Origin: Saccoglossus kowalevskii
Taxonomy: Eukaryota; Hemichordata; Enteropneusta; Harrimaniidae
NCBI RefSeq assembly: GCF_000003605.2
Contig: NW_003109984.1
Span: 1,528 to 26,883, forward strand
DNA length: 25,356 nucleotides
Direction of reading: 5' to 3'
Below the pieces are notes generated by a model, which saw only the letters and a list, made by a program, of their open reading frames with translations, ran no database searches and was not told the DNA's origin. This document shows, piece by piece, positions 1,976 through 25,356 of this stretch; within the stretch, counting starts at the first letter, position 1; each line of letters begins with the position of its first letter. A program made the translations under genes and the position numbers.

Positions 1976-2102
1976 CTAAAATCTGGACCATCTGAAACGC
2001 TATTTCCTGCATTTTGAAGAGCAAATTTTGCTGACAACAAGTATTTCAGCTAGGGTGGGCGACCGAGCATCTGCCCCCACTGCTCCGGTGCCGCCGCCAC
2101 TG
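1976..2102 (-). repeat. Dispersed repeat copy 1 (hAT-end-like)
   Basis: Read on the minus strand this starts CAGTGGCGGCGGCACC. It aligns along its length with 17099-17216 on the plus strand, with identical blocks GTGGCGGCGG, GCTGAAA, GTCAGCAAAATTTGC and AAATGCAGGAAATA. It is GC-rich at its start, in contrast to the flanks. A CAGTGGCG start is typical of many hAT-related repeats in invertebrates, so a hAT-type end is a plausible but unproven origin. The repeat underlies the start of a 137-codon open frame (2049-1636) that can mimic a GPCR tail exon. Confidence 0.7.
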
Positions 2103-5100: not shown

Positions 5101-5130
5101 ACCGATGACAGCGAATACATACATAATTGG
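2103..5130. other. Intergenic, no gene seen
   Basis: AT-rich DNA beyond the GPCR 3' end. It holds the nested hairpin at 3172-3249 and a short G-rich run at 3375-3387 (GGGGGAGGGGGTG). Open frames on both strands at 3050-3348 overlap that hairpin and look like chance. Confidence 0.55.
3172..3249. repeat. Nested inverted repeat
   Basis: TACAAAAGATTG at 3176-3187 pairs exactly with 3234-3245. Inside the loop a second, imperfect hairpin forms around GTATG-AG-CATAC. The sequence is AT-rich, and no function is assigned. Confidence 0.45.
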
Positions 5131-5136
5131 TTTAAT
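5131..5136 (-). terminator. Possible poly(A) signal ATTAAA
   Basis: On the minus strand ATTAAA lies about 310 bases after the stop codon and is followed within some 15-50 bases by a GT-rich stretch (about 5085-5120), the usual arrangement of a cleavage site. A canonical AATAAA also occurs further on at 4743-4738, and either could be used. AT-rich DNA makes chance matches common. Confidence 0.3.
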
Positions 5137-5446
5137 AAAAAAATGAATTGAGAAATTTATACCTTGTAAGGTAAACTTAAAATAATTTCTTCACTTGTAC
5201 CGTACGATATATATTTCACTATTCTGGTTGAATTCGTGGCACGTGTTTTATGTAATGAATACGAACAAACAACTACGTTGTATATATAATCCCCAGCTCA
5301 GTTAGTTACGTCATGGGAATACACTCACTGAATTTGATAGAAATCCAGGTTAGGCCGAATACATGATTATATGAACACGCGATCCTTTTGGTTGTAGATT
5401 TAAAATTTCCCTAGACGCACGCATTGCCTGTGTAGAGGATAGCAGT

Positions 5447-5578
5447 TCATGAGCATTTTGTAGATCGACTTCGATTGCGCGACGAGCGCCATGAGTCGAT
5501 CACTGTTGTTGAGTTTATGTGTGAGATGCAATTCAGGCCACAACGTCCACATATGTTACAACATCTTTTCAGTTCTTC
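5447..5578 (-). CDS. GPCR exon 4: helix 8, Cys-rich C-tail, stop
   Basis: This terminal exon of 43 codons plus TGA is short and easy to miss. The acceptor follows a T-rich tract and ends CCGTTGCAG, then GAA GAA CTG. Joined to exon 3 it continues the tail as GFR-EELKRCCNICGRCGLNC, which fits an amphipathic helix 8 followed by a membrane-anchoring cysteine cluster (C363, C364, C367, C370, C374). Palmitoylation there is an inference from the family. The remaining tail, residues 375-400, is rich in serine and arginine, with several SxxR and RSRS-type stretches that could be phosphorylated. Phase 0 is maintained, and the total then comes to exactly 400 codons. Competing acceptors further downstream give less helix-8-like tails. 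Confidence 0.87.
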   Translation of the reverse strand, partial: EELKRCCNICGRCGLNCISHINSTTVIDSWRSSRNRSRSTKCS

Positions 5579-8500
5579 CTGCAACGGACACGATAAAAAA
5601 TAAAAAGTATTGTTAGGTAGATTTAGAATTTACCCTTACATTTTAATTGACTACATCCCAATGTGCCCGAGTACGGCTAAAACGTAGCTAAAAGTAAAAA
5701 TTCAATTATTGCAATCTTCTCCTAAGGGTGTTCCAGATTTCAAGAATCCTGCAATATTGAGGGTTTTATTTATGGCAATGGTTAACCTGTAAAATTGCAT
5801 ACAGCCACGAACTATATTTTAAACTGATTGCATTTGAATAATTTATTGACAACTCCCCAAAATGATCGACATTTGGAAAATATATTGTGCTTCATCGGCG
5901 TCTCATTCCAGGAATCCCTCACCAATCTCAATCTATAATTAGCTACGTGCGGATATTTTGCAGTGACATTCAGAATTGGCATGCGACAATTTGAAGCACC
6001 TCCCCATACCCGCTCCCAGGAGATTTATTTTGTTCAGATTCCTATATCAGTAAGCTTTAATTTCGATGATTTTGCATTCCAATATTTTCGCTGGACTACC
6101 TGTGTGTTATTAATAAATACGGTTCGCACGCCACGTCACAAAAACACATGACAAATGATCTAATTTGACAAAGAATGATTGAATTTTCTCATGACCATTA
6201 TTGAAACTAATATTCCGTCATTTAACAAGGACATTCACTGACGTGCAATGTATCAAGCTGTCAAGCAAAATACATCATTACGATCATTACCATACATCAT
6301 AATCCATAAATGTTCCATGCGATTCTCGCCACGTATATACTCACTCGAAATCCGTCATGACAAATGGTATATACGAATGGATTGATAAAGCTGTTAGCCA
6401 TCGCAAGCCAATGCACGAACAAGTACACGCTAATGATGACGGTACGGTTGTTAGGATCCTCCAAAATGGTAATATCGAAAACAGTTGCTAATATTAAACA
6501 GTGTAGCGGTAACCAGCATATTGCAAATATAATTACGATTGCCACCAGCATCTTTGTAACCTGAAAAACAAAACAGATTACAATTACCAAATGTGAGATT
6601 TGTTGAAAAATATTTTTTTAATTTAATTGGTGTGATATTAAGGTTAATCTTTTGAATCTTCTGAAGCATTTCAAATCCGTGGCATATAGTGGCCATTCGT
6701 TTATGCACAGGTTTTCAAAAACACCAATATATTGGGGGTTATTCATTAATACGTTTTGAACATAGAGTTAATTAATGCATTGTAAAATAGAATAAACGAA
6801 TGGCCACCATATACGACGGATTATTTCACTATGGCAATTTAATAAACATGTATGAGTTTAAAATTGTAAATTATATTACTCTGACATTGGAACCTTCTCA
6901 AACTGATTAGTAGAAAATGTATTTAATACAGTTTTAATTATATGTTTCATGTCGTCTGTGTGATATTAATCTAAACTTGATTATTTGATATGTAGAAATA
7001 TAACTGAAAATAAAATGGTTCTAATTCGAACAGATAAATGCAAATTTCCATGATGTTGACTTACATTCTCACTGTTGTTTGTAAGAACAAATCTATTCTC
7101 ACATATACCATTGGTTAGATGAAGCACACTACTGAATCTCACCGACACAGCTAATGCAAAACCCACTATTTTGCTGGTAACAATTGTCCCATATATGGTA
7201 TGAATTCTCATTATTTATGTAGGTGTAATTATATACTACGTTCACATTAACAGATTATGTTTTTACTATCGGCAGGTAAGACAAAAACAGTGAGAATAGG
7301 ATCGCATTCACACAAATCGATTGAAATTCAGGGTTGTATGTTGGTTAAACATTCCTCAACAAATTCTTGCTAGATCTTGTTAGTTATTCCAATAAATGAA
7401 AACCTTTTACACTATTGTTTTTTCATGGATATACATTTTTTAAATAACTGCGCCTTGAAAACATATAACGAAATGATTATGTAACATCTTACATGCCATG
7501 TAGCTTAAGTTTGTTCTGTATTCCAGTATGCGTAATGTCAACAGATAATATAACAGACAATGCGAATGATTTAGAAAATGTTTATTATAAATCCATTACA
7601 TTCTAAGAAAACAGCTGGGTTCAACCAAGAGACTGACAACGCAAATAAGCATGCATAGACACATATCCTATATAAGCAAATAGCTTTCAGCTATATTTCA
7701 TTTTCATCTCTCATATTTGAATACGATACGCGAATTATAGGAGAGCCGGTCACGTTGTATGCAATGAATCAATGTACTACATGTATGCAATGTACTACTC
7801 TTTTTGAGCATGCACGTCGAACAACGCAAACACATAATAGGTCCATAAGTCTTCCTATGTCGGTCCTTTGTCTTTACAATGGTACTTTTAGTTTTTCTGA
7901 AACTTTTTTTTGTTTATTGATATTGAAATTGTATCGACACAGATGATCTATTGTTCCTGCCATAGACTTGCGTAATACAAGCATGTAACGCCCAGTTGTA
8001 TTTTAAATACAAGTCGAAAAACGTACACGCGATAATGTCCTGCGTCCCACATTTGTTTTACGCAAGTCTATGGTCAAAAGCACATAGCAACAACTTCTCC
8101 ACTCTAATCGCTAGTAACATTACACAAATATAGCGCACAATTTGAATATGTAAACGAACGCGCAAATGGGGTTGGCGGCGGGGTCGGTAGATATGACATT
8201 CACAACATTTAGAATAGAAATACCAGTGACTATAGATGGTTTCACTATAAGAAGTGTTTAACTATTAGCCGTAATTGACATTTCTGGTCACTTTTAAACC
8301 TAGTAGCTTATTGAACCACTCTGTAATTTGAAAAACATGTGATAGAAAATAACGCAATTAATGCCAACTGAAATATATGTTGATATGCACAATCCGTGCC
8401 AAGTCATATACACCGAAGACATGGCGTAAGGCAAGCGTAATTTAGAATGTAATATCGTAACAAAATAACAAACAATCTCACACGCTCAAACTCACAAACA

Positions 8501-11500
8501 AGTTGCACTTCTTACCTTTTTCTTCGATCTTCGGTATCGCCGATCACGCTTTTTGTCATTATTCCCTGGTATTTCTCTTGCCCAAAGAGCTTTCACTACA
8601 GCCGTGTATGACACAGATAATATGATAAGCGGAATCACGTACGTTGCAAAGATAACAAATACTTCGTAGACACTCTGCAGTAACTGATTATTCCAACGTT
8701 CGTCGCAATCATAAATCACCTCGCCTGTATCCATGGGATATGCCTTGGTTCTGGCAGTGACAAGTTGGAATATGCCTAATACGGATGATATTAACCATAT
8801 AAACGCAGTAACAAGTCTTGGTAGAGAAGATGGTCTAAGGTTTCTCATCGGTTCAACTACAGCTAAGTATCGATCGAAGCCAATTGCAGTTAATGTAAAT
8901 ATACTAACCGTCACAGACACCTGTATAAAATGATATAGGATCTCACATGAGTTACCCTACATTATTAGAAGCTAAAATAATAAAAATAATTAATATTACT
9001 ACTTTAAACTGTTGCTATTGTAAGATCGCAAATTTCTCTTTTTCCCATGTATCCCTTTTAAAACACATAAAGCAACTTCTGAAAGTAAGACTTAAAACTC
9101 AGAATTTATTCAGTGTTTAAGGTATATGTTTATTTGAGTAATGCATTCTTAATATGTTACTTATTGTTGAGTCAATTCAACCGTAGCCGATAGACAATTC
9201 ATAAAAAATATTTTGGTTGAAATAAAAACGTAAAGTGTGTAAAATAATACAAATTCACAACCCACAACTACAGGTAACAATTTTTGCGCATATGGAAATT
9301 GTCAGAAATCATGTCTGAAAAGGATGATTCATATATTGATACTTATCACATGAGCAGCTTGAATATCTAGAGAGCCTTATTTATTAAGCTAGGGTAATAT
9401 CCTGCACTAGCACGTGATACCTTTGACCCCGTGTTATTTGTTCCGCGGGTGAAAAAAAATATAGGCATACCTGTAACTTCAAATTCAGAGATAACATAGC
9501 TTTTCTGAAACCTCGTTTGTGTTGACGCACGTAATCAGTGTCGATAGTTAACGTTTTAGAATGTTTTATAGCAACACTTTTAGGGGTATACCCAAATGTA
9601 GACATTCTAGTTGAAATTTCAAATTTACTCAGTACTTTGCAAGACATTAGTAGCGTTCACGCATAGCTCCTTATCACAGGCTAAGAAACGCTAAGTACGG
9701 ATTAAATTTAGGCCGTTTTCAAAACCTGATCAAGATCTCCAGCACGGGCCAACGGAGTGTACGTGAACGTACGCTTAGCCCGGGCCAAGCGCCCAAAAAT
9801 CTATTGTATTCAATTCTCATTTGGAGATTTACTATTATATTCATAAATATGTCTTTTCCGCCATGACAATCAACGCGAGTACATCTAGAGTTATTGTTCT
9901 TGAAAAAAACGAACTGACGGTGAGACTGCTACTTCTTGCTATTCTGCAAGGCTGCACTTGAATTTACTTTAGAACTATTTTATAATTGTAAAACTAACAC
10001 ATATACCTGTCTATAGTTACCGTACTAGTAATCATAGCTAAAATTACTGAAGTTGTCTTTTATATTCTTAACAAGTTTGGGCGTTTCTTTCTGTTTCCTC
10101 CTGTGCGTGAACGCAATTGTCCGATATGAAAACATACGAGATCTTAGATCTTAAATCTTAGCCCATACGTTGCTAGTTTTAGAAATAATTTGAGTCAAAA
10201 ATTGGGCAAAGCTAATAATTTGATGTTTGTCAGTAATTCCACAGGTTTCTGCAGGTAAGATTTACACTCGTCATTACTCTAGTGGTCTGTATCGCGATTG
10301 TCGAGATGATACAGTTGTACATATGATAACAAATGTATTCAATACCTTGCATTGCTCGAAGCAGTATTGCAAAATATTCTCCACTACGCAATTACCTTCG
10401 AATAACCTTGCTGCAGAACAAGGAACACATGCATAACTTCCTGTTACACAACACTGGGAGTTTAAGTAACTGCTGCCCCATGAAGATTATTTTCTTTGAA
10501 AGTCCAGAAAATTGATTCTAGATGGACGTGTAATATCACATGTCTATTATTTGCCTACTTTGAGAAACCCATTATGTCAGTCATATGGTACGTGAGAATC
10601 GTAGTAATACAAACTGAGAGTTAATTAGCTTTTTTTCCAGTAGTAGATAATTTGCCAACTAAGTGCAGTTACTATACATCTCAAGCAGCGGTGTCATGTA
10701 TGTATAGTAACTGGAATTGCTTTACGTAAATCGAAAAGTTGTAAGCATGAAAACGAATTACAATAGCTGTATATATGCTATGAAATATAACAGTAAACGT
10801 TAACGTAATGGCATTTTCAACTCTAGAAGTCTATGAACATTATACGCAAGAAGAAGCATAGCAGCTGACAATCATCACACGATACCACTGGGATTGCCAA
10901 TATTCCAAGAATCCCAGTACTAGTTACAATTGTATTCCCTGGTTAGGGTATAACAAATCAAACTATGATTGATTGAATGACAGGCAAGTCACTCGCTTCA
11001 TACAAGAGTTGTATCCATATGTGTATGTATGACAGTAATGTAATTATTTCAAAACGTTAAACAATTGTTGTTACATGATGTAAGGCTTTACAATGATAGA
11101 TTCAACGTAGGATCGTCCACATATACAGTGTCAAGTTGTCCAATACATCGTTGTTATTACGGGGGAATTGAAAAGCAAACATATAATAAACAATTCCGTA
11201 GCACAATAGAACAATAACGCAAAATGTCATTTGCTATGCTATTAGAGGCATTTATATTTCTCATCATGAAATCATTACAGCAATTCCAGTATTTGTGAAC
11301 CCTACTGGATTCCAAAATAGTGATATCAGCATAAAACAATCCAATTTGCTTTAAAAAAGTGATTTAATACCGAATTTTGTATTCAATTAAGTTTTCAATC
11401 AATTATGTGAAAGATAACATTTGAACATCTCCTGGGGGAACCAAATGAAGTATGTATAATATGTTTTGAACGTGTATAAAAATTGGGTGAATGTATTTTT

Positions 11501-14500
11501 TTCTCTGTTCTGACATCAATATAATGCGCTGAAATTCCGCTTCTAGGTCTAACATTCATTCTAGAATACCCACCGAGTGCATGTAGTAAAACAACATAAG
11601 CTTGAATATTATAAAATGAACATTTAGCCAACTCTTTAAAAACGCTTTTCTTTTCCGAAAATATTAAATAAGCTCAACTCTCAAGGGTAGGAATTTATGA
11701 TTGTCACATTGTCTACACGGTTGACAGTACGATTGAAAATGAAACGGATATTTTGCGGGAAAGACTGATGTTTTTAATTATATAGAAACTTCCAAATCAA
11801 TTAATAGCATCCAAATCTAAAAATCAATAATAGCAAAAGATGCATTAATAGTTCCAGAAAAGAAACACATTTTGAAAGCACAGGGTAATTTGATTGAGTT
11901 TATATCAATCCATTTGGGAACTTGAGTGCCATAAATAGACACAAAACATGTTCAATTTATCATTCACTTCAATTCGTCGCTTTGGTAAATTATTCAGACA
12001 ATACTGATAACGTGCATATATTTGATATGATATTTATAGCATTTTCAAAATCCAAATAAGTATATATTGTTACGGTTTAGGATTAAAGAGATTACAGGTG
12101 CCGACTAATAGTCAACTGAATTCATTTCATATAGGTCTTGTTTGATACATCAATCTTAATTTCAGATATGGGAATATGAGTTCTAATGGGAGTAATGAGT
12201 TCTAATTTTTGATGCGCTCGAACAACTCAGCGTATTACCTTGAATGATTGAACCGTGAGAACTATGTATATGAATGTGGTGAAAGACATCTTTCTTGGTT
12301 AACGTGATATGTTGGTTATAATAGGTCATGGTAATACCCGTCAACAGATTATATGTCTGCTACTAGCATCCTAGCTTAAAGCGCGGTAGTCGTCGAGATA
12401 TATGGGTCTCATATAAACAAAGATGGCGACTTTGACTGTTGCGCAGATCAACGAGTACGAACTGAGACGTTTCCAAGCTATAATTAAGTAATTTTCATGT
12501 TATTGGAAGGTATCGAAGGAGTCGCCGACGGTAATCAGTGTAAGTCGCGCCCAGGTCAAACCTCATACTTGTGATTTCCATTTGAAGAGCGCATTGGATT
12601 GTGGGAAATCAACGTTTATCAATACAAATGTGGCACATGCACAGCGCGACGACTACCGCCCTTTAATAACTACGGTGAGTATGATTTCTTGCATGTGGTG
12701 CAATCGGTGGACATCGTAAGTGACTGAGAGTTAACTGCAGCAATGCTTGATTATTTTGCAGCTCAATACAATTTATTGAATACAACTCGGTCCATTCAAT
12801 AGATACTGTATTGTACAATCTTTTGTTATAGCTGTTTTCCCACATGCTAATTACCTCAACTTGTCGCGTTGTATTAATATGCATTCTTTTATTTGCAGTT
12901 TTAGAATTTTGCGCTCCAGATTCATGGCAAAAAAAAACCTTATGCGAAAGCTTTTAAGATAATCAATGGATGGTAATTATTGGATGTATACATGGATTGA
13001 TGAAGCTGCACGCACAAAGAAATGTATTTGCTAAATTTTTTTTTAAAAATTCCTGAAGCAAACTAATATTTGTTCCCACATTATGTGGGTTTAATATACA
13101 TCGACAACACAAAATGTCAGAAAATAACACACGTAGCACTTCATAATAACACTACCGGATTACATAATACATGACGATCAGTTATTCTACCCCGCATTTG
13201 AATTGTGGTCAAGAACTTATTCAGCGTCTTTAGTATCCATCTATTGAGTCTGATTGAACACACCAAGTTAAACATTTGAATAAAATAAGGATACAAAGCA
13301 CCACGTGTGTTGTTCATTACCAAGTATGAATAAAATCTAAAAATTAATTGGCATGCTTTACATTACACAATTTTGTCGTGTCTTACTTATTTGCACCAAC
13401 ATGGCCACCAGTTGACCAGTTTGAATCAAATCACAAAAACTCTTGTGCATCATTAAGCTATCATATATGATATTCGAAACAAGTTTGAATGAAATTGACC
13501 TAGACATGCCGACATGTTAAATATTTTGGGGACAAAATAACCACCAGTCATTCAAAGGATACAAAAAAAACCAAAAACAAATCAAAGTGCCAACGTGTAC
13601 CATGTTGTCGTTCACATATTACTTTCAACAAAATCGGTCAAAGCTTGCATGTGAAAAGGTTAAGAACACATATAATAACACAAACATGGCAGTCAGTCGG
13701 CCATTTTTACACAAATCGATGTGCACCAGTAACCCACTTTTATGATGTTAATACAAGGTTTGAATAAAAATGACAAAGGTATCTCGGAGTTGATGATCGG
13801 TTACAATTTTTGTGGCATTATTGTGTTTAGCGAAATGAACATTGACAACGAATTCCATACATTTGACAAATTTCAAAAATATCAATGAATATCCTAAATC
13901 GTGTGTAATAACAGTGTAAGGCCTGCTATTGATATTGAGAGGGCAATCCACAGAACTCACACTGGACATGGGGTTCTTTCGCTGCTGGAATGGGGTAGAC
14001 ACTTACAACAAGACATTAGTACTAGTTAAAGCACCTGTCGTTAATAATAACAAGCAACAAAGCACAGAAAAATACAATGAATAAATTCACTAAAATAGGG
14101 GATTGCCTAGGGAATTGATTCACAGTTGCGGGATGTCATTGCTGATAGCAGGAGATCGGAGAGCAGTTCATAAAGTCCCGCAGAATAATTATTGAAGCCT
14201 GTGTCACTTGTTTGACATTATCTCAGCAGCAATACACCGAGTACTCAGTTGAAATGGTGGACCTCAACTTTCATCAATCTAACCTATTTATAGAGCATAA
14301 ACAAATGGCCCAGTTTCGGGTACACCACCTGGGTGTCCACAGCAGTCTCACGATGACATGCAGGCACTCAGCAAGTCAGTAGATTGGAAACATGTTCAGT
14401 CCTATCTCCCAAACCCACAAGTATAGTACACGTTCCTCTATTAAAAATAATTTACGCATTCTCTCTCTTAATTCTTGTTGCTCTCACCGTAACATAAGGT

Positions 14501-17500
14501 TAACATAAGATCCCTCCACTCAACACGGTTTACGCATTACTAAATGGAAAACATCCATGGTCAGAGGACGTTTCAGTATAGAGGGGTAACCCTATGGAAT
14601 AACTTACCACCCCATATCAGAAATTCAGCCACATTAGTCATTTTTAAGAGAACTTACAAAATATATCTTAGTGAAAAATTTGTTGTAAATGGCTCAAGCC
14701 TATAGTGTGTATATTGTGTTTTTGTTCCTATAGAGGGCCAAATGAAAATTACTGTATTGTATATTGTCCTACCCTCTTTAAATATAGTGCTAAATAAATA
14801 AATACACATCCTTTGTTATCTTAATCACAAGCACACCTGGTAGATTGTTCTTTCAGAGTTGTAAACAAGTATGGCTTGTCAATCAAACTTATCACATGGC
14901 AATGCATACCGTTTCTTCCCATGATTCCATGCAATCTTCTATTTGCAAGGTTTGGGGTAATATGAAAAAACATAGAATAAAGGATGCTGACATAATGATT
15001 AAACAGATTTGACACATGTACACGAACGAATGCACAAACAGTCAGAGTCACCAGAATGACGTTTTTGGATGTCTTGTAAGCAATATTTCTACACCAAATA
15101 AATGTCTAAGCTGTAAGAAATGATTTTGTGTGTTTAGTTGCTGGTTCCAATCGTTTATACTCATAAGGCCCCTGAAGATATTACATTTTAATGGATTGCT
15201 AATATGAACCGAACATTATGAATAATAAAAAATATTCACTGACATTCTAGTATTCAGGCAGTACTGAATTTGAAATAAAATAATCCATTTCAGAGTAAAC
15301 GCACACGTTAGTTGCACGAGACGACAGTCTGTTCACTTTGGGTGACACTCATTTGCTCGATTTTTCAACATATCGTCCCTATCCACAAGTGCTTCGTCAA
15401 CTCATGTCATGTGAATTTTTATGAAAGCACCTTTTTCAAAAACACAAAATACATACTCAATATTCATACCTGTTTTTTTTTTACATTCATAGTCGGCACT
15501 TTACTTTCCAAGTCTTTTGCTGACGTCCAGTTCTACAGTTTATTCCTCTATAGTCCTAACCATTTTCATTGAGATGACTTTGACCTAGTCACTCAAGCAC
15601 CGAACAAAAAGTAGTAACATGATGTCATACATTCTTTAACGTGTTGAGACAAATCTAAATGAGAACAGTTCCTAGCAGTATAACTGCACAATTTGAATCA
15701 CATTCCTGAGTAACTAAAGCAATATCAGGAATGGTCAGACTCCTACTCATCATCATGTTAGTTCATATTAAATAAAAAAAAATGCCATGCTTGATTATAG
15801 TCAGTGTTGAGTGCTGGGAACAATCTGGTTTACCTAATAAGTTGATACTTAATAGTTCATTCATACATAGTCGTCAATTATATGTGCTTCTATCTGAAAC
15901 CTACATTAAATCACTAAGGTTTGTCCACAACACTCATAGATTTTGTTCAAGAACTTATTCAGTTTTATTTTAGTAAACAACATTAAGGCCACTATGTTTC
16001 TCTTTATTAAGTTGTGTGTTCCTTAAAGCGAATATACCACTTATGCCATATGTCTCTTGGCAATTAACTCCTATCTCTAGCGTCGTTTTTGCTATTCATC
16101 AGAGTATATTTTGTGACTAACATATGAACATTTCGCAAAACGCAAAGTGAGTCATAGTGAGAATAATTCTGTCAGTTTATGTATACTATTATTGCTTTAG
16201 TCCTTGGTACCCCCACTTTTTTACACTCTATTTCAATAAGCTAAGGGCAATATAAATATTTTTTTTTGTTAATTTATTACATAAAATGAATCATTAATTT
16301 GTGTGTCTTGTTTGGCTAGGAATTACATATTTGTACCAAAAAAGGAGGGGTCTTACCAGACTGCCAGTAATTCTCGAATTAAAATAGAGAATAAAATCAT
16401 AGTTAACAATATACAATTTTTTTTAGATAGAGCAAATATGTCAATGTTCTAGTCAAAATTGTTATACAAAACTATGACTGTTTTTGCATCACAACAATAT
16501 ATTCGTCACGCAAAAAATAGATTGAACAAGGTTGTTGACAATGTATTAAAATAATCTTATATACATTTTTCACAATATTCTCAAGGTAAAACCAACATCG
16601 AGCGGATTTAAATAAGATTTATGTGAACAATTTATCATTGTTGAATTGCATTTGAATGATGCACCCTTTTCGATAATTAACACCAATGGGAGCAAAAAAC
16701 GTGTTATGAAAATAAGTTAAAACGTGTTTAAGAAATAGTTAAGAAGACATAAAAGCCATGGTCACGATTCGACCAATATAATATTGTGTGTGATGGTTAT
16801 ACACGACAGAAGGGAGCACGCACAGACGCGCACGCAGCGAAAACACAAGTCCTTATTCGTCTGAAAGCAAATCATTCGATGTCCTTAATGGCCAAGTGGA
16901 CTTCGCAGACATTGAACGATTTTCACGACTGCTTATTTGATTACGTGTTCATCTAGCTTCTGGTCACAAACTTGGCTGGTGGAGATTGTCCACGCTAATC
17001 AGGCGACCACGAAATCATGTAAGCGATTCCTCGTTATACCATAGCCAAATCTGGCACTAAACATCGAAGTCTAAAGACCAATTAAAAAGAAAACTACGTA
17101 GTGGCGGCGGTACCGTGGGGCCCCTCGAAAAAAGTTTGGGGCATCGAAGCTGAAACCCTTTGTGTCAGCAAAATTTGCCCCTAAAAATGCAGGAAATATA
17201 GTTTCAGAGGATTTTATTCAACTTGTGAATTCCGATCGCCATTTGTACTAGATGTCCAACACCACCAGTAGCTGTATTGCCCTACCATGAACCACGGCTT
17301 GAAACTCGTCGGGTAATTCTGGTACCGGACTTTCGTATACTTAGTTAGTCATGGGCTTTCATTTATTATAACATACTTCTTCATATGTAGAATCTATTAT
17401 TTTTCCGGAAATAGCAGAAATATTGTTTGTGTTCAGTGACGTAATCTACCTCTGACAAATAACAATGGCACCCTGTGTGAAAAAGTGCAAACGTTGCGTA

Positions 17501-20136
17501 GGTGTGGCAAAATACTAAAGGGAGTTTAAGTACGTTTGAAGGCACGCTAAGTTATATTGCTGTCAGTACCATGTGTATAATAATGTATTTTATCTCGTAT
17601 ATCATAGCAGTTCAAGGTAATAAACTTTATTTGCCGCCAACAAGAGAAAAACAGCTTATATCACTCGATTTTATGGTCGATGTTCTCACCTCTCGGGAGA
17701 ATATCAACATAAAAACTCGTGTTATATCGTAAAAATCCAAGCAACAATATCCAACTATAATCAAAACAATCAATTTCAAAAGGCAATATTTGCAAATCCG
17801 AGAACACACATGTATTTTCTTGTTGGCAACGAATAGCTTCCTTATCAAGCATGAACATAGTTGAAATATGGAATAAGATCAATCACGTGAATGATATTTT
17901 TGTTTGGAACACTGCAGTTATGCGTGTTAATTTCACTACTATGAGAACATTAGCGGACACCGCACTTGTATAAATGATAATTGTATTTATCCCATAAAAA
18001 ATCGCAGTTTGGTGTAATATTGCAGTGTAACATTTTTTTTTATATTACCATACTATAATAATCCCGTCAATTTGTACGTGCAAGCTGATTGACATCGTGG
18101 TTGATATCGCAAAATAAGCCAAAAAACCGTGATATTGGTACTTGTTTGTTGGATTATAACAATTTGAACATTTCCGATAGTTTAAGATGTCCAGCTTAAA
18201 TGCTTCACAACCTCTACTTCTCAGCGCATATGATTTTTTTTGCCCGTGTTTAGTGACGATTCGTCAAGGATTGTCAAACGGCTACGGTTTGAAGTTATTT
18301 CAAAAATTGAAACCGACAATATAGTGATGACTCAAAAATAACTACATTTCTTAATCGCAATAGGGTAACCGGCTTTCAAATACGGCTATGGGTTATGAAC
18401 ATGAACCACAACGCTCTATGAGGTCTCCAATATGTTTTCGCAAACTACAATCCCTGCATTAATTATGAAAATTACAACACTCATTCAATAAATTTAATAA
18501 ATTGTAGTTTCAATCCTGATATATTTTGTTATATATCTCCATACTATTTAATAAAATATTGAGGACACGAGTTGAATATTTGTCATTCCTAACAGAAAAC
18601 TCCAGAAATTCTAGTATTTAGGTATCACTTAAGTTTGAAAAAAAAATAACGCACGAGCTGTGTGTGCACGCGTCGTCAGTTCGTTTACTTTGGTTCTTAC
18701 TCATTTCAATTGAACGCCGCAAATTCAACACGTTCACTTTTCTACGCGATGTAGTCACTTTACCGTGGACCCTTCTAACATGATTTTTTTTGTTGAGAGT
18801 GATTTTCTAATTTGTCTAATAATATTTCCGTTTAAAAAGACATTATAATGGCATAAAAACAACAAATCGTTGTTTAACACCCACTTTGCCAAATCACGCT
18901 GAGTACAAAATAGTGCTCCCGTGCAAAATATGTCAGAAATAGATTTTTCTATACTTACTTTGGTATTTTATTCATTCATTCCAAACAATCATTTAAAACA
19001 ATCATTCATTCATTAGTTCAAATATTCAACCAAAAATTCCATTCAATCATTCATTCATTCATTCATTCAACAATACATCTAATGTTATCCATTCACTCAA
19101 CCATAAATTTCATTTATCATTTATTCATTAATAAGTTGTCAAATCGAGGGAAGTAAGAACGTGTAATGCGATGAACGTTTTATCGCACATTTTTGTGAAC
19201 AAACACAAATATGTAAAGATACATGTCAAAACGAGAAATTAACAGCATGCTGTTTTTAGATTAACCTTTGCCAGTAAGATAAGCATTTTAAAATAACTAG
19301 ACGCTTTGTTCCTAGCTTATCCTCATTTTGATTACTGTGATGTTTTAATAAGGCAAGCGCTTACATTCTCCACACAATACAGGTACCCAAAAATTGAGCA
19401 GGTTGAATTATTCTTGGGGCCAAGAAAGACGCATATTAAAAAGGGGACACGTTAACAAATGGCATGGTTCAGTTTAAGTAAAAAAAGACGGATTAATCAG
19501 GCTACACTTATGTATGAAATTTTGAATGGGAGCGCACCAGAATATCGATTAACAAGATTTACAACTAATAAGAAAATTCATGGATACAGTATCAGAGCTT
19601 TATCTCAAAGGCATTCTGTTAACATTAGAACGCATTATATGAAATGTAGTTTTATCTACACCAGGCACATTTATGGAATTCAACGCTTGTATTCTCCACA
19701 CAATACAGATACTCCAGAATTGAGCAGGTCGAATAATTCTGGGGGCCAAGAAATGTGACAATATTAAAATGACACATAAAAAAGCATTTGCAAAGTATTT
19801 AAACCTGTCCCCTCATATAGATGCAAGCAGTTAATACACTGAAGCAAACACACTAATAAAATACAAACAATCACAATTAATCAAATAATTCAATGGCTAG
19901 TCCACGGCCAATGCGATTAGGCCAGTTATTTTTCTCCGTTACCATAGTAATTAAATTATAATAAAACACAGTCGGTAATATGTCAGGTATGCCGATATGT
20001 AGATGTTCAAAATCTGCAACATAAACGTAAAGCGGGAGATTGCGAAGGCTTCAATTTAAGACGTTTATGGCAGGCAACTGCAGAACACAATGTTAGTTCT
20101 CGCGCTTATCATTTCTTCGTCCCTGGCAGGAAACAG

Positions 20137-20172
<36 letters not shown>

Positions 20173-22254
20173 GTAATTGCATGTATTGTTGACGTGTATC
20201 TCTTGAATAGGTCGGTTTTCTATTGGTTCATGTTATGGAATTGGATGATGACTGCGTCTTCTGTATACTACCCAAGTGTAATACAATCGTATATTTGGTT
20301 CCAATGGACATGATGTTTTCAATAATCAATTCAATTGCTTTATCAGGAATGTTTCTCATTCATCATGTACGCATCTATACAGGTTCAGAATGCGTCCACT
20401 AGGAGTTTGTTTTGCTGAATATCTATGACACACGGGGCAAGACAATTCTTTCATCCGTGTTTTCTTCATTTCAATTCTAGGGGGCATGGCATTACGGATA
20501 TGTTCATTTCTGGTGTATGTTTTGTCAAATGCAACGAGAATAATCCCCACCGCTTCGAGAACGTAATTATATCACGCATTGGGACATTAGATTGTGACCC
20601 CATGTCAGTTCTACTGTGTAATATTTTAGCCATTCCACCTGACAGTCAATATGCTTGTTCTTACTTTATTTCTACTCATACTTTAGGGATTTTCATTTTA
20701 CTGAAGAAGGTTCCAGAAACGTCTAGCTATTTTGAATAGTTGAATACAATGATCGACAATTATAGACTATTCTATGTCTTATCTACAGCTTTTATCTATT
20801 CACTACAATAGTACGTGTCGATGCCAACACATACACACCCGCAAAGTATTGCAAAGTCTCGAGGTGTTCTCTGAATTTCTTACTCATCCTGGACACAGTC
20901 TGAGTCCTGAACGATCGTTGCAATTTTGCAAAAGTAATCGAAGTTCTTGGATCGTCTGTTGTACAGCTTATTGCACTGTGACTGCTCGCGCCCTGGGTTT
21001 ACATTGCCGACTGCTTGATTGTTTCGTGGGTATAAGAATTAACTGCTGCCCGTCTGCATTTTGGGGTCTCGCACTCATTTACCATCTTATATAATCCGTA
21101 ATGTTACAACGTGTTATCAGTAGCTATCTGACACACAATGAATGGTTACGAACACCTGAATGGTTGGTCTCCGTCATAGATTAGTTATTTGCATATTCAT
21201 GTGTCAGACACAAGGTCACGCGGCCACTTTAAAAATCATTGATTTTGGTGTTCTCATCTGCCGATTTTACCGAATTATAGCTATCCAATTCTTTTTGTTC
21301 TTTGGTTTCCAATAGCCTTATACTTTTGGATGCCCATACACATGTTGAAACAGACGTGAAAAACAAATCGGTTGCGCCGATATACAAGCTTCAAAATCGT
21401 TGCCGTGACTTTATCGACGTTTTCTAATTAAAATTTGGCACGCTACTTTTCTGAAACGCATTGCATGAATAAAACTGACACGATGCATTCAATTTAGCAG
21501 ACTATTGAACAACTAAGAAAAGCATAAAAAACAACTTCTTATCGCCAGCATAAATGCGTAATTATTTTTTTAACAGAAAAAGTATTTTTTACATTTGAGC
21601 GAGTGACGCGTCGTAGAATGCAGATACATGCATAAAAAGCAACCTTTTCAAAAGTGAAATCTGGCGGTTTCAAAAATATATACGTTCCTGGGTCTTTTTG
21701 TAGTCATTTAGTCGCAATTGTAAGATGATAACAAGTTTGCAAATAATAGCTACCTTAAGTCGTAATTGCAATCAATTAACATTATGGAACGAAATCCAAC
21801 ATACCTGTTGCATGAAACTCACAAATGGACACATGAAGTCACCAAATGGCCAATTTCCAACTAACATCGCGGTTGCAGTGAACGGCATGCATAGCGCTCC
21901 CATAGCCAGATCCGATACAGCGAGGTTAATGAGAAACGTATTAAAGCTTGTTCTAACACGATTTTCAGAGGATAAAATACAGATAGCAATGCTATTTCCA
22001 ACAACTGATAACCCGACAGTTATTACAAATACTATGGACGTGAAGATCTTTGCAACCACACTGATACCGTCGTTGACTGTATATAGCTGTGAGCAATGTT
22101 CACTAACATAGTCTGAATAATGGAGATATGAAGAATAATAGTCAACAGACCAATTAAAACTATCTGCATATGTAGAGCTGTTACAGTGAGGTAATGGACA
22201 GATTTCACATAATGCATTGTGCCAATCAGATGTGTAATTGCTCATATCCTCCAT
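5447..22254 (-). CDS. Class A neuropeptide GPCR, orexin/allatotropin-like, 4 exons
   Basis: The gene is a join of 22254-21805, 8920-8516, 6560-6345 and 5578-5447, giving 400 residues plus TGA, a normal class A GPCR length. Exon sizes are 450, 405, 216 and 132 bases, so every intron is phase 0 with GT-AG ends. Landmarks by residue: N87 in TM1, D115 in LAVSD of TM2, C142 before TM3 paired with C222 in loop 2, DRY 166-168, W192 in TM4, P247 and Y255 in TM5, CWLP 300-303 in TM6, and NPFVY 345-349 in TM7. By family knowledge it is a plasma-membrane, G-protein-coupled receptor for a peptide. Inference: CDERW (222-226), LWAREIPG (262-269) and HWLAMANS (335-342) recall orexin receptors. However, DRY rather than DRW, and CWLP, leave room for a related NPY/SIFamide/QRFP-type receptor. 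The gene looks intact. I am sure of class A, but only moderately sure of the subfamily. Confidence 0.93.
5579..6344 (-). other. GPCR intron 3 (766 bp, phase 0)
   Basis: This intron lies between TM7 and helix 8, with donor GTGAGTAT and an acceptor ending CCGTTGCAG after a T-rich tract (minus strand, about 5579-5605). Nothing else was recognised in it. Confidence 0.85.
6345..6560 (-). CDS. GPCR exon 3: TM6 and TM7
   Basis: Exon 3 encodes residues 286-357. The acceptor is a pyrimidine-rich tract ending TTTTTCAG, followed by GTT ACA AAG. TM6 carries FAICWLP, with W301 and P303 as the toggle and kink residues. The outer loop 3 includes the sequon NRT at 323-325. TM7 has HWLAMANS and then NPFVY (345-349). 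The exon ends GGA TTT CGA before GTGAGTAT, a strong donor in phase 0. Reading through the donor would give 15 more residues and a stop. Splicing is preferred because the donor is good and a convincing helix 8 exon lies 766 bases further on. Confidence 0.94.
6674..6822. mobile_element. 149-bp inverted-repeat element (MITE-like)
   Basis: The arms 6674-6704 and 6792-6822 are inverted copies with 28 of 31 positions matching; their inner 16 bases, GTGGCCATTCGTTTAT, are identical. The arms enclose about 87 bases of AT-rich sequence. No clean target duplication is seen, although ATTTC occurs just outside both ends. It lies about 110 bases from the acceptor of GPCR exon 3, inside intron 2. Confidence 0.55.
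7960..8073. mobile_element. 114-bp inverted-repeat element (MITE-like)
   Basis: The sequence 7960-7980 (CCATAGACTTGCGTAA plus five bases) matches the reverse complement of 8053-8073 at 20 of 21 positions. Near the middle sits a 17-base perfect palindrome at 7996-8012 (TTGTATTT, one base, AAATACAA). The structure fits a small non-autonomous DNA transposon or a foldback element. No clear target-site duplication is visible, so mobility is inferred from the termini alone. Confidence 0.6.
8516..8920 (-). CDS. GPCR exon 2: TM3 to TM5 and loop 3
   Basis: Exon 2 encodes residues 151-285. The acceptor reads TTATACAG followed by GTG TCT GTG, so the first residue is valine and not a start codon. The join reads FMQQ-VSVTVSIF, a normal TM3. 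DRY is at 166-168 and TM4 has W192. Loop 2 contains C222 within CDERW. TM5 runs about 233-259, with P247 and Y255. The inner loop begins LWAREIPG (262-269) and is short and very basic, with K or R at most positions of 273-285. The exon ends AAA AAG before GTAAGA, a consensus donor in phase 0. The LW-R-IPG motif at the TM5 boundary is the strongest recalled resemblance to orexin receptors. Confidence 0.95.
10666..10713. repeat. Perfect 14-bp stem-loop
   Basis: CAGTTACTATACAT at 10666-10679 is the exact reverse complement of 10700-10713, around a 20-base loop. Pairing stops outside the stem, so it is shorter than a typical microRNA precursor. It could be a foldback remnant or a cruciform. It lies in intron 1. 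Confidence 0.6.
12376..12666. mobile_element. TTAA-flanked MITE-like element
   Basis: The ends are inverted repeats: 12376-12395 matches the reverse complement of 12647-12666 at 19 of 20 positions. Each outer end is TTAA, followed by AGCGCGGTAGTCGTCG on one side and AGGGCGGTAGTCGTCG on the other. This is the layout of a terminal-inverted-repeat DNA transposon with a TTAA target duplication, as used by the piggyBac and Kolobok groups. The AG-starting termini are unlike the CC-starting ends usual for piggyBac. At about 290 bp it is non-autonomous. Inside, an ATG at 12423 in a strong start context opens a 22-codon frame ending at 12491, possibly the remnant of a transposase start. It lies in intron 1 of the GPCR. 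Confidence 0.75.
13170..13790 (+). repeat. Degenerate tandem repeat, about 137-158 bp period
   Basis: A motif of the form AAGTTTGAATGAAAT-GAC recurs at about 13324, 13482, 13619 and 13755, with a fainter one near 13193. Each is preceded by related sequence such as ACATGGCCACCAGT (13400), AAATAACCACCAGT (13540) and ACATGGCAGTCAGT (13685). Spacing is 137-158 bases. The units are strongly diverged, so this is an old satellite-like or element-internal array. Confidence 0.5.
14401..14804 (+). mobile_element. LINE (non-LTR retrotransposon) 3' tail
   Basis: This is a 5'-truncated fragment. From 14401 one frame reads HKYSTRSSIKNNLRI. After a frameshift, from 14571 another reads FQYRGVTLWNNLPPHIRN followed by a FKRTYK-type end. 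This ordered pair of motifs is the usual C-terminal end of a CR1/L2/Rex-like reverse transcriptase protein. A short 3' untranslated part follows and ends in a TAAATAAATAAATA tail at 14791-14804, as such elements do. The frame shift and stop codons show it is dead. It sits in intron 1, opposite to the GPCR strand. Confidence 0.8.
15244..15354 (+). repeat. Diverged dispersed repeat, copy A
   Basis: This aligns with 18608-18706: both start ATTCTAGTATT-AGG, continue with a TTTGAAA-AAAA stretch, and later share GCACG, a TTACTTTGG or TCACTTTGG block and ACTCATTT. Similarity is patchy and indels are needed. The family is unknown. Confidence 0.4.
17099..17216 (+). repeat. Dispersed repeat copy 2 (hAT-end-like)
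   Basis: Second copy of the family at 1976-2102, in opposite orientation. It begins TAGTGGCGGCGGTACC, then has a diverged middle of almost equal length, then GCTGAAA, GTGTCAGCAAAATTTGC and AAATGCAGGAAATATAG. The two copies keep spacing to within two bases over the first 57. It lies in GPCR intron 1. Confidence 0.7.
18608..18706 (+). repeat. Diverged dispersed repeat, copy B
   Basis: Partner of 15244-15354 in the same orientation, about 3.36 kb away, with the same order of short shared blocks. It is just upstream of the ATTC-rich stretch. Confidence 0.4.
18968..19133 (+). repeat. ATTC-rich simple repeat
   Basis: An interrupted (ATTC)n tract; its longest pure run is ATTCATTCATTCATTCATTC around 19049-19068. 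The flanking units are degenerate (ATTT, ACTC), which suggests an old microsatellite. Confidence 0.85.
19354..19450 (+). repeat. Direct repeat unit 1 inside the LINE remnant
   Basis: This unit of about 97 bases recurs at 19681-19775, offset by about 326 bases. Shared blocks include ATTCTCCACACAATACAG, ATTGAGCAGGT and GGGGCCAAGAAA. It encodes the reverse transcriptase segment around ILQNRAGRIILGAKK, here with several stops. Confidence 0.75.
19681..19775 (+). repeat. Direct repeat unit 2 inside the LINE remnant
   Basis: Second copy of 19354-19450. It is better preserved: one frame reads LHTIQILQN, a stop in place of R, then AGRIILGAKK. It is joined abruptly after the LWN motif that normally lies about 100 residues further along the protein. 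Confidence 0.75.
20138..20172 (+). repeat. (TTA)n microsatellite
   Basis: About eleven and a half uninterrupted copies of TTA. Its purity suggests it is young and likely to vary in length between individuals. Confidence 0.95.
20356..21094. other. Unassigned stretch with long open frames on both strands
   Basis: This part of intron 1 is less AT-rich than its surroundings and keeps frames of 104 and 106 codons open on the plus strand (20425-20739 and 20774-21094). On the minus strand a frame from 20550 to 20356 includes a basic, cysteine-containing segment (KKTRMKELSCPVCHRYSAKQ). Another minus-strand frame near 20975-20806 reads TFAKLQRSFRTQTVSRMSKK. I recognise no family. Several open frames over one another are typical of a decayed transposon, but a small antisense gene or an extra exon cannot be excluded. 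Confidence 0.3.
21805..22254 (-). CDS. GPCR exon 1: N-tail, TM1, TM2, start of TM3
   Basis: Exon 1 encodes residues 1-150. The ATG at 22254-22252 is preceded in frame by a TAG at 22269-22267, so the frame cannot extend further without upstream splicing. A second ATG (residue 4) has a better -3 purine context. The extracellular tail of about 65 residues has three N-glycosylation sequons (N6, N25, N34), four cysteines (C16, C19, C24, C54) and many tyrosines and acidic residues, and no obvious cleavable signal peptide. TM1 spans about 66-92, with GN at 86-87. TM2 is about 104-131, with LAVSD at 111-115. The first outer loop carries NWPFGDFMC, whose C142 is the conserved disulphide cysteine. The exon ends in MQQ at a good donor (CAG then GTATGT), before the third base of no codon, i.e. 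phase 0. Confidence 0.94.
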
Positions 22255-22379: not shown

Positions 22380-25356
22380 CGTATATGTGCTAGATACTTG
22401 CCTTAACGGCTCCTATTAACGCAAATGTCGATTATACTCTATCGGTGATGGTTATAATGTGAAAAAATGCGCAGCACAAACATGCGCAAACATCGTATTT
22501 ATCAAGTCAATGACGACGAAATGACGTATGCATTATGTAAATGTCGCCTATGGTGACAATACAGGATATATTAAATATATATTACACATTAACATGGAAT
22601 TACATAAAAAAAATGTACCTTACTCGTATACATATAAACCAGCAGAAAACACAGCCGTAAATCGTAAGTTTGATGAGAAGCGACTTAATTGCTTAGCGAT
22701 TATCGGTTGATTTTAAATCTGATACATCTCCTGCTTGGATTGACAGTGTTAAGCAATTACCGTAACTGTTAGCACACTGTATGACACAACACATGTCTGG
22801 AGCATTTTAGATATTTTTTGTCTTATTGTAATTTCTAATATAATATTATAATACTTGTAGACGTGATTAGCCAGCTATTGTGTACGTATGCAAGACCGCT
22901 CGCGGGCATATGCATTCTAATCACGTTTTTCATCAGACATTGCGGTTCGTCGGGTCTGTCTTGTACATTTTTCACATCAATTAACTCAAAAGCAACCTTC
23001 ATCTCGACTGCTCATGCTAAGGAATGTAAACGTTTTTTTGGGCACAACAGATGTGTGTTTTGATGTCAGGTGACCGCTTAAGTACATGCACATACGAAGA
23101 TGAAATTGTTTAAATTACCAAGAATAAGATAAATCTCGAAACATGACTATAGGTAAACTGAACAGCAAATGGCATGCACTCGCTAACTGAAAAGGCCCTC
23201 CTCATTTGCATATTTTCCATACAAATTATCGAAAATAGAGCGATATAAAATTGTTTCACAAAACCTTATCATTTTTACAAAATTTGTTCTTTATCGTACA
23301 CTTTCATTACACGATAGTGATACTAGAGATGTATTTAGCACCGTTTGTTTATTTATTCAGAAACAAGATATTTTTCATTCATTTACATTTCCACACAAGC
23401 TGCAAACGCACACTGAAAAAAATGTTCTGACACCAAACTCTCTCTCATCTTATAAATTATATTTCTACCCTATTTCAACACTTGCGGATAATCCATTTCA
23501 TGTTTTTTTTAAATAACTATACCTACCAACGAAGTAGAAATTATTTTTAAAACAAGTTGTATTACTCAGTATAAGGACCGTCTCACACATAGTAAACCCT
23601 TATTACATTCATGTCGTATTTACAGATATGAAAAATAGAAACACCAAGTTCGCAAACTCGTCCATGATCTTCTTTTTCACAGATCACTCATAAATCACTT
23701 TAACCTCAACTGAACACCACAATACTAGATCATTGGTCAATTCTGAATAGACCATTTTCCGTTCACTGCGAGAATCACGCGTTATGCGTGAAATCGAACG
23801 TAAAAACAGAACAAACAAAGGTCATAACGTCGTAGTCGCGTCAAACATCGCGTGGGATTCGACAAACGCGAAAGTATTTCGGGGACATTTCCATGCTTAA
23901 TAATGTGCTGTCCACATTTGATGATAGGCAATTTCGATTAAGTAAGGGTATTCGGAAGCAATATTCCTCTGTCGAAGATCGGCCGGTCAATGTAAGCTGC
24001 GAAATAAAGAAATTCTAGTTCAAAATCAAATCGTTCGATTTTTGCGGCAGACGTTCGACGCGCGTCTTTCATGCATCTCGCGAGATCTCGCAATTGTTCG
24101 GAAAATTCACCTATTCACAGTTCCATTAAAAAGAACAAATCTAGGTCAGTCTTAAATCGGCTACAATTTCCAACACTATGCAACGATTTAGCCTAAACAA
24201 TTACAGTAACTGTCAGCAATATAAGATATATAATGAATAAAGCACGTATATTAATTTTCATTTTTGTCTGAGACTTTTTGTTCATTTATTTCTGTCTTTC
24301 CCTTATAGCTATACTTAACCGGAAACAAATGCGACTAGCTCAAATTCAGCTAACTTCTGTTTTCAATTACTTAATTATTATAAACAATATTTAATATTAT
24401 ATCATTGTTTTGATTAATTTTACTAATAAATCATTTCGGCATGTTATTTCTACTTTATAACCTTAAAAGTCTGGCATAAAATGTGTAATTTTATAATCTA
24501 AGTTCATGTTTTTGGCATGCAAAACCTATAAAAACTATTTAGTATTCATATAATATGGCCGAAATAAATTCACTTCATGTTTCAAATCTCAGGTCATAAT
24601 ATAATAATTCGATAATAGCTGGCTGTCTTAAACTTATTTCTATAGTTAATCTATATATTATTTTATTTGCTCTTAAATAATTGCATAATAATTGTACAAC
24701 AACAACAAAAAATGTGTTACAGTAGAACTATAACACATATCTTTGGTGTAGTTCGAAGGCATTTTTAAACAAATGTTGAATATTGTACAAGTTTTACGCA
24801 TACGTAAAGTGAATAGTATTTGTATAGATTGTGTTGTTCGTACGATAACTGGTAAATAATTGTTCCTAAGATTTATGTGAGGGCCATACTAGAACACAAA
24901 TATATCCGCCTTCATTCTCACTCGACATACAAAGTTTGTAGTTGTCTTCTACGAAAACGATTCCGTGAGACTTGTCCTCTTCCACCGTCAATACACGACT
25001 AGAAAATGTCTATAAACACGATTGTATCGTTAGAATAATTCTCCGGGTTGAGGACGTTTTCTTGTTATGATACAAAGTTTTTCTTTAAACGCCTTTTCCC
25101 CCACAAAATTGTGTTTAAAGATATCAACTGCTCTTGTCACGAATCCTCAATGAAATATATGAGAATAGATACTTATAATGGGAGCCTACCATAATCCCAA
25201 AGGACACAGACATCGTACGTTGGCGATTTAACACCGATGTTAGTATTATAACAATTTAAATGCACATGTGCAGTGTCGCGATACTTCCCGTATTCCGAGA
25301 AATTCTCATTTTAAGTCGCAAATTTCAAAATCTTAGTATCAAATAACTGTGCATGG
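22380..25356. other. Upstream intergenic region, no gene seen
   Basis: This lies upstream of the GPCR promoter. Except for the CpG-rich patch at 23760-24130 it is AT-rich, with only short open frames such as 22528-22710 and 22863-23063, which have no recognisable domain. The 24200-25356 part shows no coding signal. Confidence 0.55.
23760..24130. promoter_or_regulatory. CpG-rich patch with TCTCGCGAGA motif
   Basis: CG dinucleotides are much denser here than elsewhere in the window. At 24076-24085 is the perfect palindrome TCTCGCGAGA, overlapping a 12-base palindrome GCGAGATCTCGC at 24080-24091. In vertebrates TCTCGCGAGA is a known promoter element of CpG-island genes. No exon is visible beside it, so a promoter for a gene outside the window is only an inference. 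Confidence 0.3.

What the first reader, a model, noticed from the sequence alone, without database searches (positions are those of the whole stretch)
5447..22254. A complete four-exon peptide GPCR can be read through a 16.8-kb locus
Three long open segments carry TM1-3, TM3-5 and TM6-7. Trimming each to its consensus splice site gives lengths that are exact multiples of three, all phase 0. With the short last exon the total is 400 codons plus stop. All class A landmarks (N87, D115, DRY, W192, P247, CWLP, NPFVY and the C142-C222 pair) are intact. The parts seen separately would look like fragments.
Basis: partly seen in the sequence, partly recalled or inferred. Interest (0 to 1): 0.75.

Follow-up and report, generated by a model that had tools for sequence, protein, structure and literature searches.

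The report
Four-exon neuropeptide receptor gene, confirmed
The window holds an ordinary, intact-looking animal gene for a cell-surface receptor of the kind that senses small signalling peptides; its four-exon layout is matched by a sister gene on the same contig, and it has many relatives in this animal's genome.

Summary
The joined protein matches Pfam 7tm_1 over the whole profile (E 1.7e-62). Each proposed junction outscores every alternative tried, the third by only 0.8 bit.

The decisive evidence is a sister gene about 150 kb away on the same contig (G000:C452:171271-179752) with four exons and all three introns at the same codons and phase. The two differ far more at silent than at amino-acid-changing sites (dN/dS about 0.17), so both are under purifying selection. 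At 23 of 23 further loci chosen from this genome, the TM3-TM5 exon has the same two borders. A few relatives not fetched seem to lack the second intron.

It is a rhodopsin-class peptide receptor near the tachykinin and orexin receptors. It lacks the orexin/allatotropin signature, and no orthologue could be named. Organism, ligand and transcripts were not established. Verdict: correct, well supported, ordinary.

The parts
21805..22254 (-). Exon 1 (coding part): ATG, N-terminus with sequons NYT, NSS and NWS, then TM1, TM2 and start of TM3; ends ...FMQQ
   Evidence: donor GTATGT; sister exon L101:272-727
8921..21804 (-). Intron 1, 12,884 nt, phase 0
   Evidence: sister intron 3,756 nt at the same codon
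8516..8920 (-). Exon 2: rest of TM3 with DRY, TM4, second extracellular loop with C222, TM5, start of third intracellular loop (LWAREIPGN)
   Evidence: same borders in sister gene and at 23 of 23 further loci examined
6561..8515 (-). Intron 2, 1,955 nt, phase 0
   Evidence: sister intron 491 nt at the same codon
6345..6560 (-). Exon 3: TM6 (CWLP), TM7 (NPFVY), start of helix 8 (HDGFR)
   Evidence: sister exon L101:5380-5595 with the same borders
5579..6344 (-). Intron 3, 766 nt, phase 0
   Evidence: same position in sister gene
5447..5578 (-). Exon 4: helix 8 and cysteine-rich tail, 43 codons plus TGA stop
   Evidence: sister exon 4 at G000:C452:179591-179752

Best explanation
A functional animal gene for a rhodopsin-class (class A) neuropeptide receptor, transcribed from the minus strand and spliced from four coding exons. 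Shown: gene structure, full seven-helix homology, intron positions shared with a sister gene, purifying selection between the two, and kinship to many receptors in the same genome. Inferred: the protein sits in the plasma membrane, binds an extracellular peptide (probably amidated, as for related receptors) in the helical pocket under the C142-C222-tethered second loop, and through DRY, CWLP and NPFVY switches on a heterotrimeric G protein, probably Gq as in tachykinin and orexin receptors. It is expected to act in neuromodulation. The ligand is unknown.
For: Exons, splice sites and landmarks. 7tm_1 over the full profile. The best solved relatives are peptide receptors: OX2R 168.5 bits, NK3R 165.2, NK1R 163.8, PrRPR 160.8, NPFFR2 155.8 (60 rows shown of 847 matched). 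Junctions rank first among the alternatives tried. Sister gene with four matching exons. dN 0.21 and dS 1.23 over 353 codons; 240 of 353 residues identical. TM3-TM5 exon with the same borders at 23 of 23 other loci examined.
Against: No transcript or protein evidence. Exon 4 has only a 0.8-bit margin from family homology alone. Some more distant relatives in the genome read without a stop from TM3 into TM7 (C130, C2107), so the second intron is not universal; they were not fetched. A 5' non-coding exon or alternative last exons cannot be excluded. Peptide ligand and G protein are inferred from relatives at 30-35% identity.
Confidence: 0.95

Rival explanations
1. An orexin/allatotropin receptor: it would bind an orexin- or allatotropin-type peptide.
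For: Best single solved match is OX2R (168.5 bits). CDERW in the second loop and LW-R-IPG in the third are shared with OX2R in the printed alignment. The data do not reject a clade with OX2R (p-AU 0.352).
Against: The signature E/DRWYAI (381 of 392 sequences in PMC6629687, passages) is replaced by DRYLAV; that paper admitted only sequences with E/DRW, so the signature is partly circular. TM identity to OX2R is 33.3% (64 of 192, my TM limits), against 48-54% between human orexin and allatotropin receptors and 40-42% for the Ciona receptor (PMC10987541, passages). OX2R groups with another receptor of this genome, L047, and not with the window, in the three trees, with modest support (91/70, 86/82, 83/83).
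Confidence: 0.07
2. A receptor of the tachykinin/luqin branch, enlarged in this lineage.
For: Highest identity among the rows is to NK3R (34% over 283 columns); 35.2% overall and 38.3% in TMs. Grouped with NK1R/NK3R at 97/91 in one tree. The third-loop consensus LWGRxLPGNADxxRDxxHxxSKxK resembles luqin/RYamide receptors as I recall them. Luqin and tachykinin receptors are paralogues (PMC5940834, abstract and passages; PMC7041311, passages).
Against: Support falls to 51/39 once the sister gene is added. In the exon-2 tree the window clade does not join the NK pair. No luqin receptor sequence was available to test.
Confidence: 0.4
3. A pseudogene or assembly artefact: chance open frames plus decaying exons.
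For: Open-frame length alone is near chance; some other 7tm_1 matches in this genome carry stops.
Against: Intact 400-codon frame, consensus splice sites, dN/dS about 0.17 against the sister gene.
Confidence: 0.02

Closest known systems
Tachykinin receptors (NK1R, NK3R; solved structures)
   Same: Class A peptide receptor; 35% overall and 38% TM identity to NK3R; LW..EIPG in the third intracellular loop and CWLP in TM6
   Different: Does not form a supported clade with them once the sister gene is included (51/39)
Orexin / allatotropin receptors
   Same: Best phmmer score (OX2R); CDERW in loop 2 and LW-R-IPG in loop 3
   Different: DRY instead of DRW(YAI); TM identity 33%
Luqin/RYamide receptors
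   Same: Loop-3 pattern PGN..RD..SK+K as recalled; the family is paralogous to tachykinin receptors (PMC5940834)
   Different: Not testable: no luqin receptor sequence was held
Prolactin-releasing-peptide, NPY and QRFP receptors
   Same: Same broad peptide-receptor assemblage
   Different: This genome has separate single-exon relatives that match two of these clearly: L028 with QRFPR 253.8 bits, next receptor 182.3; L049 with PrRPR 227.4, next 199.5. The window gene has no such preference

Membership tests
Class A (rhodopsin) GPCR | Full-length 7tm_1 domain above the curated cut-off | tested here: met
   211.7 bits against cut-off 30.5, profile 1-260 of 260
Class A (rhodopsin) GPCR | N1.50, D2.50, DRY, W4.50, P5.50, CWxP, NPxxY and the TM3-loop 2 cysteine pair | tested here: met
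   that C142 and C222 bond is inferred
Orexin/allatotropin receptor | E/DRWYAI at the TM3/loop 2 border (PMC6629687) | tested here: not met
   DRYLAV. The paper selected sequences by E/DRW, so the criterion is partly circular
Orexin/allatotropin receptor | TM identity to human orexin receptors in the family range (48-54% for allatotropin receptors, PMC10987541) | tested here: not met
   33.3%, 64 of 192, OX2R only, my own TM limits
Tachykinin receptor | Supported clade with NK receptors | tested here: inconclusive
   97/91 without the sister gene, 51/39 with it, not joined in the exon-2 tree
Luqin/RYamide receptor | Clade with deorphanised luqin receptors; response to luqin-type amides | not testable with these tools
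   No eukaryotic protein collection held; no bench
QRFP or PrRP receptor | Clear best match to the human receptor | tested here: not met
   PrRPR 160.8 bits, below OX2R, NK3R and NK1R; QRFPR not among the 60 rows shown of 847
Multi-exon receptor set of this genome | Phase-0 introns at the TM3 border and before TM6, exon-2 clade | tested here: met
   23 of 23 loci examined share both borders; clade of 24 rows at 99/98: window, sister and 22 loci, L119 left out. The loci were picked as best matches to the window, and 11 of 68 single-exon relatives served as outgroup

The most novel reading that the evidence does not exclude
The window gene is one of a lineage-specific radiation of some 25 multi-exon peptide receptors (window, sister and 23 sampled loci) whose ligands are unknown: an enlarged branch near the tachykinin/luqin split that may serve a large peptide set or chemosensation of released peptides.
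Probability: 0.3. Interest if true: 0.4.

Novelty: new member of a known kind. Interest (0 to 1): 0.22.

Why it matters
It shows that raw-sequence reading recovered a correctly spliced gene across a 12.9-kb intron, with junctions confirmed independently by a sister gene. Biologically it adds one well-formed peptide receptor and points to a set of more than twenty related loci in one animal genome with a shared exon layout, a useful starting point for naming the family and finding ligands. Amphioxus has comparable beta-group expansions (39 NPFF-receptor-like sequences; PMC2246102, passages), so such expansion is not in itself surprising.

Tried and rejected
Chance frames: rejected, but only through homology; frame lengths alone are near the 95th percentile of shuffles.

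Alternative junctions: 39, 27 and 1915 candidates scored within the ranges given to the script, the proposed ones included and highest; read-through after exon 3 scores 275.2 against 286.9.

Other genes in the window: no tRNA, no Rfam match at gathering thresholds, no Pfam match below E 0.1 in the ten ORFs given, of the 75 listed (one match at E 0.17). The other ORFs were not scanned.

Tachykinin orthology: suggested by one tree, not upheld. Orexin/allatotropin membership: signature not met.

Relatives in prokaryote contigs: 58 pattern matches, none a relative. The stretch beyond the window's high end shows no letters in the 9,000 of 9,917 bases profiled and gave no ORFs; it was not pursued. 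The 1,527 bases at the low end (L010) were fetched but not examined for genes. The organism was not identified: the COX1 request did not complete.

Full report
WHAT WAS CLAIMED. A four-exon peptide GPCR on the minus strand of window 5447-22254, phase 0 throughout, 400 codons plus stop, all class A landmarks intact.

CHECK. The pieces 22254-21805, 8920-8516, 6560-6345 and 5578-5447 are 450, 405, 216 and 132 nt. The introns are 12,884, 1,955 and 766 nt. Frame length is not by itself remarkable: the longest real open frame is 164 aa, while 200 first-order Markov shuffles of the window had longest frames with median 125, 95th percentile 162 and maximum 190. The homology is decisive: the joined protein matches Pfam 7tm_1 at E 1.7e-62 over profile positions 1-260 of 260.

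JUNCTIONS AGAINST ALTERNATIVES. I built a profile from 14 single-exon receptors of the same genome, the highest-scoring 14 of 68 translated from the loci, and scored GT/GC-AG alternatives in ranges around each junction. The proposed junction came first of 39 (286.9 against 276.7 bits), first of 27 (against 283.3) and first of 1915 (against 286.1; any frame, each cut at its first stop). The third result is weak, since the profile says little about the tail.

SISTER GENE. The window lies in contig C452 of a 572-Mb, 4830-contig assembly. A search of that genome with the joined protein gave 105 matches. After the window's first two exons, the two best were on the same contig, plus strand: 72% identity over aa 149-288 and 56% over aa 3-158. 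A third, 68% over aa 285-366, lies just downstream at a lower score. In that stretch (L101) the strong homology breaks at the proposed junctions; BLAST ran the matches a few residues into intron. There the sites read CAACAG|GTAAGA, CATTATAG|GTTTCT, CTAAAA|GTAAGT, GTTCAG|GTTACA and TTTCGA|GTAAGT: same codons, same phase. Its exons are 456, 405 and 216 nt. Exon 4 was not recognised in the first 1.9 kb downstream but was found in the next stretch behind the acceptor TTTTTCTCCAG. It reads ADLRNFCTLCRRGGMDCVSHL...SWRSS against the window's EELKRCCNICGRCGLNCISHI...SWRSS, with a score of 64 against a maximum of 30 in 300 shuffles. Over 353 aligned codons 240 residues are identical, dN is 0.21 and dS 1.23; in the core from codon 67, dN is 0.15 and dS 1.12. 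The duplication is old and both copies have been kept as proteins.

A WIDER SET. Many of the other matches cover just the TM3-TM5 exon. I examined 23 of these loci, chosen from that table (three came, twenty). All 23 have an in-frame AG at the codon where the window's exon 2 begins and a GT where it ends. A script with a fixed sequence pattern found both in 22 of 23; the one it missed, L103, shows both sites at offset 0. Not examined were at least five further matches that extend towards TM7; two of them, on C130 (aa 145-370) and C2107 (aa 160-378), have no stop inside and so seem to lack the second intron. In a tree of exon-2 stretches, 22 of the 23 loci (L119 was dropped because its automatically chosen end ran past a stop) formed a clade with the window and its sister (24 rows, support 99/98), separate from human orexin, tachykinin, NPY/PrRP and QRFP receptors and from 11 single-exon receptors of this genome. 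These loci were picked for likeness to the window, only this exon was read in most, and near-identical pairs such as L110/L112 may be uncollapsed alleles. The deeper branching is not resolved.

WHICH RECEPTOR. Among solved structures the best scores are OX2R 168.5 bits, NK3R 165.2, NK1R 163.8, PrRPR 160.8 and NPFFR2 155.8, with no clear winner. Identity is 30.1% to OX2R (TM 33.3%) and 35.2% to NK3R (TM 38.3%). As controls, three single-exon receptors of the same genome were tried and each has a clearer partner: L028 matches QRFPR at 253.8 bits, next receptor 182.3; L049 matches PrRPR at 227.4, next 199.5; L047 matches OX2R at 187.7, next NPFFR1 168.0. The orexin/allatotropin family is described by E/DRWYAI (PMC6629687; abstract and passages), partly by the way its sequences were selected; the window has DRYLAV. 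One tree joined the window to NK1R and NK3R at 97/91, but adding the sister gene dropped this to 51/39, and a clade with OX2R is not rejected (p-AU 0.352). A profile of 19 exon-2 sequences (window, sister and 17 of the 23) scores orexin and tachykinin receptors nearly equally (106.6 and 103.1 bits). The loop-3 consensus LWGRxLPGNADxxRDxxHxxSKxK recalls luqin/RYamide receptors, which are paralogues of tachykinin receptors (PMC5940834; abstract and passages); that resemblance is from memory and could not be tested.

HOW IT WORKS. Shown: gene, splice structure by comparison, seven-helix protein, selection, kinship. Inferred from class A knowledge: glycosylated N-terminus, disulfide C142-C222 tethering loop 2, peptide binding in the helical bundle, activation through DRY/CWLP/NPFVY, probable palmitoylation of the cysteines after helix 8, coupling probably to Gq. 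Ligand unknown.

VERDICT. The gene is an ordinary, intact member of a well-known superfamily; the enlarged set with a shared exon layout is the only part of mild wider interest.

Noticed in passing
L101 and L102 (G000:C452:171271-179752, plus strand): Sister receptor gene of the window gene, opposite strand, four exons with the same three intron positions; 412-aa joined protein.
   Followed up: yes
L095-L097, L103-L122: 23 further loci in this genome carry the same TM3-TM5 exon with the same borders; three lie on C171 and two on C1168, suggesting duplication. Pairs such as L110/L112 are nearly identical and may be alleles.
   Followed up: partly
G000:C130:172380-173045 and G000:C2107:98686-99348: Relatives that read without a stop from TM3 into TM7, so they seem to have lost or never had the second intron.
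   Followed up: no
window 19358-19427 and 19684-19753; ORF 19456-19758 (+): A 70-nt direct repeat (87%) beside an ORF that looks like the tail of a LINE-type reverse transcriptase (recalled resemblance; no Pfam match).
   Followed up: partly
window 1991-2051 and 17148-17208: Inverted repeat, 61 nt, 85% complementary, 15 kb apart; probably copies of a dispersed element.
   Followed up: no
window 14865-14989, 23779-23981 and 24017-24092: Match flanks of other receptor loci (L078, L075, L077) at 78-81% identity: dispersed repeats.
   Followed up: no
G000:C1465:1077013-1077816: A 7tm_1 match lies inside an open frame of 7540 aa, unusually long for a receptor.
   Followed up: no
G000:C593, 403-827 kb: Six receptor-like places on one contig; in four of the six at least one of the two searches matched across stops. 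Possible local expansion with pseudogenes or introns.
   Followed up: no
L009 (G000:C452:26884-36800): The stretch beyond the window's high end shows no letters in every 1-kb step profiled (1-9000), so sequence upstream of the gene beyond the window could not be read.
   Followed up: no
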